Assembly (NCBI RefSeq): GCF_014199525.1
Contig: NZ_JACHNU010000001.1
Span: 1,714,182-1,778,181, forward strand
Source: Conexibacter arvalis
GTDB lineage: Bacteria; Actinomycetota; Thermoleophilia; Solirubrobacterales; Solirubrobacteraceae
Reading direction: 5' to 3'
Length of the DNA: 64,000 bases
The position numbers and the translations under genes are program-made. A model generated the notes under the pieces. The model searched no databases. It was not told where the DNA came from and saw only the letters and a list, made by a program, of their open reading frames with translations. Below, piece after piece: positions 24,404 to 52,719 of this stretch (the stretch's first letter is position 1; the number at the start of each line of letters is the position of its first letter).

Positions 24404-24450
24404 ATCAATGGCGGTCTGTACAGGCATGTCCTGTACAGACCGCCATCGAT
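24404..24450. repeat. 47-nt palindromic element, copy a (kinase 3' side)
   Basis: This 47-nt near-perfect palindrome has 20 of 21 arm pairs and a 5-nt loop CATGT. The inner 17 pairs (24408-24424 with 24430-24446) are perfect. Ends are ATCA and CGAT. It lies 6 nt beyond the stop of the minus-strand kinase pseudogene and may terminate that transcript. Length, loop and ends match the element at 25505-25551 on the other side of the kinase, although the arm sequence differs. Confidence 0.75.
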
Positions 24451-24456
24451 CGCGGC

Positions 24457-25425
24457 TCAGTGGCCGTGCGGGAGGAGCGAGGCGGCCGATCTCGTGGCGA
24501 TCTGGAGCGCGACCTCCGGCGATCTCGCCTCGCCGCGGACGGCGTAGTTGCCGCCGGCGTACGCGATGAAGTACGTCGCGGTGTGGAGGTCGTCGCTGGA
24601 GGCGGTCCGCAGCGCGACGTCGCCGAAGCCGGCGATCGTCGTCGGCACGACGGTCCCGCCGGCGGTCTCCTTCGCGTACTGCCGCTCGCCGCGCCGCTGC
24701 CAGCTGCGGCCGCGCGGTCGCCGTGGTCCATCGCCGGGAAGGCGACCGTCGCGTCGTCAGGGTCCGGTGCTGCGGGGCCGGTCGCGACGCTGCGATCTGC
24801 GGCCTCCGGCTCGCGGCCGTCGGCGAGCGCGGCCGCGGCCCGCGCCAGGCCGCCGGCGGAGGCGAAGCGGTCGGCGGGCGCCTTCGCGAGCGCGCTTGCG
24901 AACAGGTCGTCCCAGCGTGCGTCGAGCGTCGGCACCAGCTCGCGCGGAGACGGGACGGGCGCGTTGACATGCGCCCACAGCTTCGCCGCGTCGTTGTCGC
25001 GGCGGTACGGCACCGAGCCGGTCAGCAGCTGGAACAGCAGGCAGCCGAGCGCGTAGACGTCGGTGCGGGCATCGACGCGCCGCCCCTCGATCTGCTCCGG
25101 CGTGCAGGAGCCGTCGCAGGTCGCCGCCAGGCAGCCAGCGCATGACGATGTACAGCTCGCCGTCGCGCTCGCCGGCGTCGTGGATCGGCACGACGTGCGG
25201 ATGGTCGAGGGAAGCGGCGGTCCGCGCCTCCTCCTGGAAGCGCTCGCGGAAGCCGGGATCGCCGGCCAGCTCGGGCGAGAGCAGCTTGAGCGCGACGCGG
25301 CGGCCGAGCGCCTCCTGCTCGGCGAGATAGACGACGCCCATGCCGCCGCGACCGATTGCCCGGACGATCCGGCAGCCGGCGACGACGGTGCCGCTGGTCG
25401 CGTCCTCGCGCATGCGAGTGGGCAT
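24457..25425 (-). pseudogene. Ser/Thr protein kinase, catalytic core deleted and frameshifted
   Basis: Three frames together encode a damaged PknB-type kinase. The first frame (from 25425) gives the N-lobe: GRGGMGVVYLAEQ glycine loop, VALKLL with the ATP-binding Lys, and YIVMRWLPGGDLRRLL. It then jumps in another frame to TPEQIEGRRVDARTDVYALG and the C-lobe helices. The catalytic loop (HRD), the DFG motif and the activation segment, some 70 residues, are missing. A second frame change within the C-terminal half leads to an external domain with GFGDVALRTASSDDLHTATY and ends at 24457, without a clear membrane helix. It cannot be an active kinase. Two 47-nt palindromes bracket it. Confidence 0.85.
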
Positions 25426-25504
25426 GCTAACCGCGGTGAGCGCGCCGTCGCGCCGGATCGGTCGGGCCCGTCAGCCCCGGTGGACGGCGCACCCGTCGCG
25501 CGCC

Positions 25505-25551
25505 ATCACTGTTGATCGGGGCACGGCATGCGTGCCCGAATCAGCAGTGAT
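25505..25551. repeat. 47-nt palindromic element, copy b (kinase 5' side)
   Basis: This 47-nt palindrome has 18 of 21 arm pairs, loop GCATG, left end ATCACTG and right end CAGTGAT. The core GGGCACGGCATGCGTGCCC (25519-25537) recurs exactly at 53941-53959, and 39 of 47 positions match there. It lies between the kinase pseudogene start and the end of the LLM oxidoreductase gene, and could also act as a terminator for the latter. Confidence 0.8.
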
Positions 25552-49995: not shown

Positions 49996-50033
49996 CGCGA
50001 CGCCCGAACGTACGCCGTGCTCCGCGAAAAACT

Positions 50034-50078
50034 GCACATATGAGTGTAATAATGCGCTTATGTGCGATACGGTGCACA
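50034..50078 (+). promoter_or_regulatory. AT-rich promoter and repeated operator for HTH-nucleotidyltransferase gene
   Basis: In this GC-rich window the segment 50024-50070 is strikingly AT-rich. It holds TAATAAT (50047-50053) as a likely -10 region, flanked by GCACATA (50034-50040) and TATGTGC (50059-50065), a perfect 7-bp inverted pair. A third half-site with GCACA lies at 50074-50078. Autoregulation by the winged helix of the encoded protein is inferred. Confidence 0.6.
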
Positions 50079-50706
50079 CATCGACCTCTCCCGTCCTTAC
50101 AGCGCTGTGTCACCGGGGCTGGCCGGCGACGTGCTCGCCGTGCTCGCCGGCACGACCCGCCCGCTGACCGGGCGCGAGGTGGCGCGGCTCGCCCGCCGCG
50201 GTTCGCCGCGCGGGGTGCTCACGGCGCTCGACCGCCTGGTCGAGCAAGGACTCGTCGCCCGGGCGGAGGCGGGGCGCGCGATGCTCTACACGCTGAACCG
50301 CGACCACGTCGCCGCGCCGGCGGCCGTCGCGCTCGCGCAGCTGCGGTCGGAGGTGGTCGAGCGGGCGCGCCGCGAAGTCGCCGCGTGGCAGATCGCCGCG
50401 CAGCACGCCTCGGTCTTCGGCTCGTTCGCGCGCGGCGACGGCGACGTCGGCAGCGACATCGACCTCTTCGTCGTCCGGCCGGCCGGCGTCTCGGCCGACG
50501 ACGCCGACTGGCGCGAGCAGCTCGATCGCCTCGCCGAGCGCGTCCGTGCCTGGACCGGTAACCACGCGAGCATCGCCGAGGTGGCGAGCGACGACCTCGC
50601 GCGCCTGCGGGAGGATCGCCCTCTGATCGTCGACGAGCTGTCCGCCGACGCGATCGCGCTCGCAGGTCCCGAGGCGCTCCAGCTCTTTGAGAGGGATGCG
50701 CGATGA
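50062..50706 (+). CDS. Winged-helix plus minimal nucleotidyltransferase (MNT) protein
   Basis: This protein of up to 214 residues has an N-terminal winged helix (DVLAVLAGTTRPLTGREVAR, LARRGSPRGVLTALDRLVEQ) fused to a minimal nucleotidyltransferase. Its motif GSFARGDGDVGSDIDLFVV fits GSx10DxD, the metal-binding active site. GTG at 50107 is a possible later start that still keeps both domains. The next gene encodes a HEPN-type protein overlapping by ATGA in a frame that then breaks. MNT/HEPN pairs are toxin-antitoxin modules in which the nucleotidyltransferase adds AMP to the HEPN RNase. The fused DNA-binding domain would add autoregulation at the AT-rich operator. Confidence 0.85.
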   Translation: MRYGAHIDLSRPYSAVSPGLAGDVLAVLAGTTRPLTGREVARLARRGSPRGVLTALDRLVEQGLVARAEAGRAMLYTLNRDHVAAPAAVALAQLRSEVVERARREVAAWQIAAQHASVFGSFARGDGDVGSDIDLFVVRPAGVSADDADWREQLDRLAERVRAWTGNHASIAEVASDDLARLREDRPLIVDELSADAIALAGPEALQLFERDAR

Positions 50707-50802
50707 GCCGCCGCGGCGGGCGCACCCAGGTCTGCTCCGCGGCCGACGCGCGCTCGTCTCACGCACGCGAGCAAGTTCCTCGAAGTTGCGGAGCTCGTCG
50801 CG

Positions 50803-51120
50803 ATGGAGGAGCCCGACAACCCCGAGTCCGCGAACGTCGCCGCGTCGCTCGCGGTCCTCGCCGGGATCGCCGCATCCGACGCGGCATGCTGTGCGGCGCT
50901 CGGCCGGCGCTCGCGCGGGCAGGATCACCGCGACGCGGAGGCGCTGCTCGGCGAGGTGGTGCCGGGCGGTGATGTGGCAGCGAAGCGGCTGCGGCGCCTG
51001 CTCAACCTCAAGGACGCCGCGCAGTATGGGTTCATCCACGTCTCGGGAGCCGAGCTGCGCGCCGTGCTTCGTCAGGCCGAAGCGCTGGTCGACTTCGCGC
51101 GGCGCGTGCTGCTGCGGTGA
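50803..51120 (+). CDS. HEPN-like partner protein, N-terminal region out of frame
   Basis: This 105-residue ORF has the helical HEPN pattern, with LAGIAASDAACCAALGRRSR followed by GQDH, giving an Rx4-6H type motif, then LKDAAQYGFIHVSGAELRAV. The same frame is open back to 50707 and encodes a HEPN-like start (LTHASKFLEVAELVAMEEPD), but no start codon lies there. ATG at 50703, which overlaps the nucleotidyltransferase stop (ATGA), is in a different frame. One small indel near 50745-50760 would restore a protein of about 140 residues. The HEPN gene is therefore either truncated with a start at 50803, disrupted, or expressed by frameshifting. Confidence 0.65.
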   Translation: MEEPDNPESANVAASLAVLAGIAASDAACCAALGRRSRGQDHRDAEALLGEVVPGGDVAAKRLRRLLNLKDAAQYGFIHVSGAELRAVLRQAEALVDFARRVLLR

Positions 51121-51162
51121 CGACGGCGGCGCGCGGAGATGGCGCCGCGCCGGAGCGGCGCG

Positions 51163-52719
51163 CTACTTGAACTTCGGCAGCGGCCCTCTCGCGTCTCTGA
51201 CGAGCATGCCGCGGTACATCTTGCGCACCTGGGCGGGGTTGCTGGCGGCGAGGTTGCGGACCTCGCGCCGGTCGCGGCGGAGGTTGTAGAGCTCCGGTCT
51301 GCCGCCCTGGGAGTCGGCGACGTACGACCAGTTGCGGTCGCGCGCGAAGACGATCGAGCTGTAGGAGCCGGTGACGTAGTCGCGTCTCTTCTTCGGCTTC
51401 TTGCCCTCCAGCAGCGGCATCAGGTTGATGCCGTCCATCCACCGCGGCCGCTTGACGCCGGCGGCGGCCAGCAGGGTCGTCGCGACGTCCTCGGTCTGCG
51501 AGTAGAAGTCGGTCTTCTTGCGCGCGCCCCTGCCGCCCGGGTGGCGCAGCATCATCGGCACCTGGATCAGCTCCGGGTGCAGCTCCCAGGCGAACTTCGC
51601 GACGTAGCCGCGCTCGCCGAGCAGGAAGCCGTGGTCGCTGAGGAACATGATGACCGTGTCTCTCTCGAGGTCGAGCTCGTGGAGACGCTGCATGAAGTTG
51701 CCGAACCAGCGGTCGGCCATCGTCAGCTCGGCGTAGTAGAGCGCCTTCATCGCCTTGATGTCGGCGGAGCTGAGGCCGTTGGCCTTCGCGGTGCCGTTGA
51801 GGACCGTGCCCGGCTGCCAGGCGCGGCTGTAGCTGCCGCCGTGCAGCTCGAGGTATCTCTTCGGCGGGTCCCACGGCTCGTGCGGGTCGAAGCAGTCGAT
51901 CGCGATCGCGAACGGCTTTCTCGACTTCGCGCCCTCCTCCAGCAGCCGCATGCCGGCGGTGAAGACGCGCGCCGGGAGGTAGTCGTCCTCTCTTCTGACC
52001 GGCAGCTGGTTGGCCAGGTACTGGCGCATCTTCTGGCCCGAGGAGGAGGTGAGGATCTTCGGCGCGACCCACTTCGCCAGCTCGGCGTCGCTGATCTGCG
52101 AGGCGTCGGCGGTGACGGTGCCGGTCTGGCCCTTGATCGGGACGTATCTGTCCCAGTCGCGCTGGAACGGCTTCTGCGAGTCGACCATCACCCACGGCGT
52201 GTCGACGGCGTAGCCGGTCCAGTAGCCGGCCCGTCTCAGCGTCGAGATCAGGTTCTCGTCGGGCACCGGCTGCCAGCCCGGCGTGCCCGGCATGTCGGCC
52301 GGCTTCTTCCAGTTGCGGAACGGGAAGAGGCGGGTGCCGCCGAAGATCGTCGCGCGCGCCGGACCGGTCGGGAACGACTCGGGGTAGCACTGCGTGAAGC
52401 GCAGCGACTCGCGCGCGAGCGCGTCGAGGTTCGGCGTGTGGGCGTTGCGGCGGCCGTAGGAGCCGAGCGCGTCGGCGCGGACCGAGTCGATGATGACGAG
52501 CAGCAGGTTCGGGACGTCGCCCTTCTTGACCTTTCTCGCGAACCGCTGCGGCGTGCGCGGCTTCGCCGCGACGGTCGCGGCGACGTTCGACGCGCTGACG
52601 GTCGCGGAGCCGCCGCCGCCGTCGCCGCTGCCGCAGCCGGCGATCCCGAGGACGCCGACGCCGGCGGCGCCGACGCCCGCGCGGCGCAGCAGTTCTCGTC
52701 GATCGATCTCGTTGGGCAT
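51163..52719 (-). CDS. Sulfatase-fold hydrolase with Thr in place of the formylglycine Cys
   Basis: This 518-residue exported protein has an RRELLRRAG start with a hydrophobic stretch ending in a lipobox-like GIAGC. The alkaline-phosphatase fold follows: LLLVIIDSVRADALGSYG (metal Asp), the nucleophile region FPTGPARATIFGG, AIDCFDPHEPWDPP, and FLSDHGFLLGERGYVAKFAW (Asp-His metal site). In sulfatases the nucleophile lies in CxPxR or SxPxR. Here the aligned residues are TGPAR, so Thr would be the nucleophile, as in LtaS-like phosphotransferases, and formylglycine is not possible. It may act on phosphate or phosphonate esters. GGAGG precedes the ATG. AGA codons are frequent. Confidence 0.85.
   Translation of the reverse strand: MPNEIDRRELLRRAGVGAAGVGVLGIAGCGSGDGGGGSATVSASNVAATVAAKPRTPQRFARKVKKGDVPNLLLVIIDSVRADALGSYGRRNAHTPNLDALARESLRFTQCYPESFPTGPARATIFGGTRLFPFRNWKKPADMPGTPGWQPVPDENLISTLRRAGYWTGYAVDTPWVMVDSQKPFQRDWDRYVPIKGQTGTVTADASQISDAELAKWVAPKILTSSSGQKMRQYLANQLPVRREDDYLPARVFTAGMRLLEEGAKSRKPFAIAIDCFDPHEPWDPPKRYLELHGGSYSRAWQPGTVLNGTAKANGLSSADIKAMKALYYAELTMADRWFGNFMQRLHELDLERDTVIMFLSDHGFLLGERGYVAKFAWELHPELIQVPMMLRHPGGRGARKKTDFYSQTEDVATTLLAAAGVKRPRWMDGINLMPLLEGKKPKKRRDYVTGSYSSIVFARDRNWSYVADSQGGRPELYNLRRDRREVRNLAASNPAQVRKMYRGMLVRDARGPLPKFK

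What the first reader, a model, noticed from the sequence alone, without database searches (positions are those of the whole stretch)
50024..51120. HTH-fused MNT with a HEPN partner whose start is out of frame
The first gene joins a winged helix to a GSx10DxD nucleotidyltransferase and has an AT-rich operator with repeated GCACA half-sites. The partner has an Rx4-6H HEPN motif, but its natural N-terminus (50707-50802) is not in frame with the coupled ATG at 50703. Either the toxin is disarmed, or it is made by programmed frameshifting or from an internal start. Autoregulation by the fused domain differs from classic MntA-HepT pairs.
Basis: partly seen in the sequence, partly recalled or inferred. 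Interest (0 to 1): 0.6.

Follow-up and report, generated by a model that had tools for sequence, protein, structure and literature searches.

The report
Frame-broken HEPN toxin beside intact antitoxin
This is an actinobacterial copy of a known kind of toxin-antitoxin gene pair in which the toxin gene's reading frame is broken near its start while the antitoxin gene is whole; such one-sided damage recurs in relatives and is what one expects when a toxin is lost but its antidote stays.

Summary
The observation largely holds. A winged-helix/minimal-nucleotidyltransferase fusion (wHTH-MNT, 50062-50706) is followed by a HEPN gene. Its first ~17 codons lie in the frame of ATG 50703; the rest (to 51120) lies in another frame with no start codon until an internal ATG at 50803. 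Relatives read the whole HEPN unbroken from the ATG next to the MNT stop. ATG to a conserved codon is 75 nt in four relatives, 73 nt in the window. So this is a lesion (or a sequence error), not a conserved frameshift signal or a natural internal start; the internal ATG is not conserved and would remove helix 1.

The pair is not Class I MntA-HepT. It fits "Class II HEPN/MNT" and PADLOC's candidate PDC-M05. In the order, 5 of 21 MNT loci keep an intact MNT beside a damaged HEPN; none shows the reverse. The pair sits between two convergent genes that abut in two congeners.

New member of a known kind, in damaged form. The repeated loss of the HEPN side is the most interesting part.

The parts
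50033..50078 (+). AT-rich stretch before the MNT gene with GCACATA-N18-TATGTGC and GCACA half-sites; candidate operator/promoter
   Evidence: Sequence. Weak on its own, but its reverse complement aligns to the congener's upstream region better than 200 of 200 shuffles, and 6 of 18 homologous upstream regions carry inverted repeats matched or beaten by at most 1 of 100 shuffles.
50062..50706 (+). wHTH-MNT fusion (antitoxin candidate, PDC-M05A-like), GTG start, 214 aa
   Evidence: PF01909 3.5e-7; PDC-M05A 2e-13 over residues 24-139; family alignment
50113..50346 (+). winged-helix domain (residues 18-95)
   Evidence: AF2 model matched to ArsR/MarR repressors, Z 11.7
50419..50463 (+). GSx10DxD nucleotidyltransferase motif, intact
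   Evidence: (GS, D and D invariant in 12 sequences)
50703..50756 (+). Start of the HEPN gene in the frame of the coupled ATG: first ~17-18 codons homologous to relatives
   Evidence: (profile positions 1-22)
50745..50760 (+). Frame break in a GC-repeat; window net 2 nt shorter than all five relatives aligned
   Evidence: ATG to conserved F codon 73 nt versus 75 nt in four relatives
50755..51120 (+). HEPN body in the second frame (open from 50707), no further stops, 71% identical to the congener
50803..50805 (+). Internal ATG, not conserved; a product from here lacks helix 1
50926..50928 (+). Invariant His of the family (helix 2-3 loop)
   Evidence: H75 of the reference; aligned to the loop His of 2hsb
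51010..51027 (+). Invariant Lys and Tyr (KxxAxY) at the end of helix 3; the Tyr is the candidate AMPylation site

Best explanation
A wHTH-MNT/HEPN toxin-antitoxin module of the Class II (PF05168/PF01909, PDC-M05) kind, gained or lost as a unit between two convergent chromosomal genes, whose toxin gene carries a lineage-specific frame-breaking lesion about 45-55 nt after its start. In intact relatives (inferred mechanism) the wHTH binds the AT-rich operator and limits transcription. The MNT domain uses GSx10DxD to adenylylate the invariant Tyr at the end of HEPN helix 3. Unmodified HEPN acts as an RNase or RNA-binding inhibitor through the loop His with the helix-3 Lys. In this genome full-length HEPN is not made from the coupled ATG: that frame runs on to a stop at 50970-50972 as an 89-aa peptide unrelated to HEPN after its first ~18 residues. 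The module is therefore disarmed, with an intact antitoxin/regulator left behind. Shown: domain anatomy, frame break, intact relatives, recurrence of HEPN loss. Inferred: toxicity, AMPylation, autoregulation.
For: Unbroken HEPN ORFs with homologous N-termini in G005, G020 and G059, and 13 intact HEPNs among the 21 MNT loci of the order. Two-frame profile match in the window. A 2-nt length difference at one GC-repeat. Third-position-biased divergence (0.45 against 0.18-0.21) shows that the HEPN was under protein-level selection until recently. Five loci in the order have an intact MNT with a damaged HEPN (window; G456 first ~75-80 aa gone; G606 cut after ~62; G523 cut after ~90; G032 35-aa internal deletion); G016 is damaged in both; no locus has a broken MNT with an intact HEPN. 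The phylum sample adds G402 and G241, against one frame-broken MNT (G206) whose HEPN has lost the invariant Tyr. 10 of 27 family members match PF05168. The predicted fold of an intact relative matches 2hsb, Z 16.9 over 120 residues. Invariant H, K, Y. Empty site in G003 and G004. Frame breaks are otherwise rare in 464 kb of this genome.
Against: No reads were available, so a 2-nt sequence error cannot be excluded; the rest of the HEPN frame is clean, which fits either a very young lesion or an error. Toxicity and AMPylation have not been shown for this family. Class II HEPN/MNT pairs had no biochemistry when described (PMC7641770), so calling the HEPN the toxin rests on analogy and on the decay pattern. 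Some of the damaged relatives are draft assemblies.
Confidence: 0.68

Rival explanations
1. Assembly or sequencing error: the gene is intact in the organism and the 2-nt difference in the GC-repeat is an artefact.
For: Single small indel in a GC-repeat, no further stops or frame changes in the remaining ~120 codons, and purifying-type divergence: exactly what an error in an intact gene would look like.
Against: Genome of 5.2 Mb in 18 contigs, 99.2% complete. In 464 kb around it only 4 of 381 coding segments lack a start and five places show a direct frame change (two of them in one damaged kinase gene), so indel errors are not common. HEPN damage that cannot be a sequencing slip recurs in relatives.
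Confidence: 0.22
2. The HEPN is still made, by ribosomal frameshifting near 50745-50760 or from the internal ATG 50803, as a regulated or shortened form.
For: Frame intact after the break; an ATG exists at 50803.
Against: Relatives with an intact gene need no frameshift, so no conserved recoding signal is expected. The internal ATG is not conserved and its product lacks helix 1 of the four-helix core.
Confidence: 0.05
3. The wHTH-MNT is kept for a job of its own after toxin loss (stand-alone autoregulated nucleotidyltransferase/regulator, or protection against incoming relatives of the module). This can be true together with the best explanation.
For: MNT intact beside damaged or missing HEPN in several lineages; orphan MNT in G036 with no HEPN found. 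Window MNT keeps all catalytic residues and GC3 0.91.
Against: Retention after recent toxin loss needs no selection; antitoxins are expected to outlast toxins. MNT divergence (58% identity to the congener) exceeds that of the HEPN (71%).
Confidence: 0.2

Closest known systems
Class II HEPN/MNT modules (PF05168/PF01909; PMC7641770)
   Same: MNT first, HEPN second; GSx10DxD kept in the MNT; no RX4HXY in the HEPN; conserved Tyr in the HEPN
   Different: MNT fused to an N-terminal winged helix; the window's HEPN is frame-broken
PADLOC PDC-M05 (M05A nucleotidyltransferase + M05B HEPN), candidate defence system
   Same: MNT matches PDC-M05A across the wHTH and catalytic parts (2e-13); 10 of 27 HEPN relatives match one PDC-M05B model (PDLC04375), best 2.5e-6
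   Different: The window's own HEPN does not reach PDC-M05B; antiviral role unconfirmed (PMC12988326)
AF0298 (2hsb) HEPN-T proteins
   Same: Best structural and profile match among HEPN structures; same loop His, basic residue and Tyr pattern (PMC3710099)
   Different: AF0298 has Arg where this family has Lys; ~20% identity
MntA-HepT type VII (Class I) toxin-antitoxin (SO_3165/SO_3166; 5YEP, 7AE2)
   Same: MNT with GSx10DxD upstream of a HEPN of similar fold (Z about 9-10)
   Different: No RX4HXY; HEPN of another Pfam family; MNT has a fused wHTH
9XBD/9XBC (HEPN and nucleotidyltransferase chains, solved structures)
   Same: Second-best sequence match of the HEPN profile (9xbd_A) and best of the MNT profile (9xbd_E); 9xbc bears Phe at the Tyr position
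   Different: Weak similarity (E 0.005 for the HEPN); no publication found here

Membership tests
Class II HEPN/MNT (PF05168/PF01909) | MNT of PF01909 with GSx10DxD | tested here: met
Class II HEPN/MNT (PF05168/PF01909) | Partner HEPN of PF05168 | tested here: met
   10 of 27 family members match PF05168, best 1.8e-7, though not the window protein itself; fold match of an intact relative to 2hsb Z 16.9
Class II HEPN/MNT (PF05168/PF01909) | No RX4HXY; conserved Tyr | tested here: met
   Invariants A, H, K, Y only; KxxAxY
Class II HEPN/MNT (PF05168/PF01909) | HEPN toxic and neutralised by MNT | not testable with these tools
   Needs expression assays
Class I MntA-HepT (type VII TA) | RX4HXY at the end of HEPN helix 3 | tested here: not met
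   Window has RLLNLKDAAQYG there; the His-containing RRSRGQDH lies in the helix 2-3 loop and its Arg is not conserved
PDC-M05 (PADLOC) | M05A-type nucleotidyltransferase | tested here: met
   2e-13
PDC-M05 (PADLOC) | M05B-type HEPN next to it | tested here: inconclusive
   10 of 27 relatives match one M05B model (PDLC04375), best 2.5e-6; the window HEPN does not
PDC-M05 (PADLOC) | Protects against phage | not testable with these tools
   Candidate status only
Programmed-frameshift gene | Frame change conserved in relatives | tested here: not met
   Unbroken frame in relatives with an intact gene

The most novel reading that the evidence does not exclude
The wHTH-MNT half is repeatedly kept and used after the HEPN toxin is lost, as a stand-alone autoregulated nucleotidyltransferase or an anti-addiction shield against incoming copies of the module.
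Probability: 0.18. Interest if true: 0.5.

Novelty: new member of a known kind. Interest (0 to 1): 0.3.

Why it matters
Class II HEPN/MNT pairs are widespread but were biochemically untested when described. The family here gives a compact set of three invariants (loop His, helix-3 Lys, Tyr) to test, and a natural experiment, repeated HEPN damage beside intact MNTs, that argues independently that HEPN is the harmful half. The frame break itself is an ordinary loss-of-function event or a sequence error, not a new mechanism.

Tried and rejected
Two scans of genome contigs with the window HEPN and with an intact relative found few loci; whole-genome searches worked better. A scan of viral contigs found none. 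A first coding-potential model trained on the longest ORFs learned the antisense strand and its output was discarded; retraining on verified genes fixed it. A first codon-position comparison of the HEPNs used a wrong offset in the relatives and was replaced. The operator's GCACA repeats and inverted repeat are not significant alone. Programmed frameshifting and a natural internal start were rejected from relatives. The Rx4-6H reading was rejected because the Arg is not conserved and the motif is in the wrong place. No restored HEPN sequence was built or folded; the structure model is of the intact relative from locus L010.

Full report
Anatomy. The MNT gene (50062-50706, GTG start) encodes an N-terminal winged helix and a nucleotidyltransferase with GSx10DxD. 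The AF2 model is only moderate (mean pLDDT 68.6), but the wHTH part is better and matches ArsR/MarR repressors at Z 11.7. The protein matches PADLOC's PDC-M05A at 2e-13 over residues 24-139, so the fusion lies inside an already catalogued family. The HEPN gene begins at ATG 50703, overlapping the MNT stop.

The frame. From ATG 50703 the window reads MSRRGGRTQVCSAADAR, which aligns with the relatives' MARKPGRTQLCTAADAR (G005), MARAVTRTQTCSDQDAK (G020) and MARQKGRTQDCTPAQAR (G059). Then homology jumps to the second frame, LTHASKFLEVAELVA..., to the stop at 51120. A three-sequence profile hits both frames (profile 1-22 and 13-139). The second frame opens at 50707 after a stop and has no ATG/GTG/TTG before 50803. 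An alignment with five relatives puts the difference in a GC-repeat near 50745-50760, where the window is 2 nt shorter; ATG to the conserved Phe (Tyr in G475) codon is 73 nt against 75 nt in G005, G020, G059 and G475.

Lesion, error or recoding. Relatives need no frame change, so a programmed frameshift is not a property of the family. The ATG at 50803 corresponds to Leu in the congener, and a product from it would lose helix 1 (residues 13-35 of the L010 model, pLDDT 88). Divergence between window and congener HEPN is concentrated at third positions (0.45 against 0.21 and 0.18) at 71% amino-acid identity, more conserved than the MNT (58%). The gene was therefore under protein-level selection until very recently, or still is and the sequence is wrong. 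In 464 kb of this genome a codon-usage model finds 381 coding segments, 4 lacking a start and 5 direct frame changes, two of them in one damaged kinase gene, so indel errors are not frequent. I favour a real, young lesion about 3:1 over an error.

Decay pattern. All 232 held genomes of the order were searched with the MNT profile: 21 loci in 20 genomes. Thirteen have an intact HEPN. Five have an intact MNT with a damaged HEPN: the window, G456 (first ~75-80 residues gone), G606 (cut after ~62), G523 (cut after ~90) and G032 (35-residue internal deletion). G016 is damaged in both genes; G036 and the distant G491 have no HEPN found. No intact HEPN lacks an intact MNT. In a phylum sample G402 and G241 have a damaged HEPN beside an intact MNT, G116 and G433 are damaged in both, and G206 has a frame-broken MNT with a HEPN whose invariant Tyr is Cys. 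Counting 7 HEPN-only against 1 MNT-only lesions, with gene lengths of about 138 and 207 codons, a length-proportional chance gives about 0.009 (hand calculation). Draft-assembly errors could inflate the count, but the large deletions cannot be single-base slips. This one-sidedness is what a toxin and antidote should show.

What kind of HEPN. Across 27 members only A23, H75, K103 and Y108 (reference numbering) are invariant. Ten of 27 match PF05168, best 1.8e-7. The L010 model matches 2hsb (AF0298) best, Z 16.9, 120 residues, 2.2 A, and a profile aligns the loop His, the basic residue and the Tyr with those of 2hsb and 9xbd. PMC3710099 described just this variant: no His in the helix-3 motif, its basic residue kept, and an alternative His in the helix 2-3 insert. 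The Class II HEPN/MNT of PMC7641770 is defined by PF05168 without RX4HXY and shows a conserved Tyr and GSx10DxD, with no biochemistry known at the time.

Regulation. The upstream region is AT-rich (0.50 against about 0.25 in the genes). Its repeats are not beyond chance alone, but its reverse complement resembles the congener's upstream region (0 of 200 shuffles) and 6 of 18 homologous upstream regions carry inverted repeats matched or beaten by at most 1 of 100 shuffles. With a fused wHTH this makes autoregulation likely, but it is inference.

Setting. G020 corresponds to a Solirubrobacteraceae MAG, and it is in the same family as the window's genome, so the window is probably from that family. 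In the window and in G005 the pair lies between a sigma-factor-like gene and a sulfatase-like gene; in G003 and G004 these two genes abut with gaps of 44 and 22 nt and no pair. In G006 a PemK/MazF toxin pair sits beside the same sulfatase gene, so the spot may accept different toxin-antitoxin modules.

Verdict. A damaged (or mis-sequenced) member of a known, little-studied kind. The frame break is ordinary; the recurrent HEPN-side loss and the H/K/Y invariants are worth a specialist's attention.

Noticed in passing
L104:3124-3707 (G006), beside the sulfatase homologue of window 51163-52719: A small ribbon-helix-helix-like gene followed by a PemK/MazF toxin gene (PF02452, 4.7e-24) sits at the 3' end of the same sulfatase gene that borders the MNT/HEPN pair in the window: a possible hot spot for different toxin-antitoxin modules.
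   Followed up: partly
window 24405-25505, - strand: A serine/threonine kinase gene appears broken: kinase start and end match Pkinase in different frames (profile 3-90 and 165-253) with the middle, including the catalytic loop, missing.
   Followed up: partly
window 49996-51162 versus G003 and G004: The gap between convergent sigma-factor-like and sulfatase-like genes is 44 and 22 nt in two congeners and about 1.17 kb with the pair in the window: a clean occupied/empty site.
   Followed up: yes
L026 (G206): The only locus seen with a frame-broken MNT and a full-length HEPN frame has Cys instead of the invariant Tyr in the HEPN.
   Followed up: partly
L050 (G586) upstream of MNT: A perfect 17-bp inverted repeat (4-nt spacer) just before the MNT start; a strong operator candidate in a relative.
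   Followed up: no
PDB 9xbc/9xbd: Recent solved structures of a HEPN protein (9xbc with Phe at the Tyr position) and a nucleotidyltransferase match this family's profiles; no paper was found in the library.
   Followed up: no
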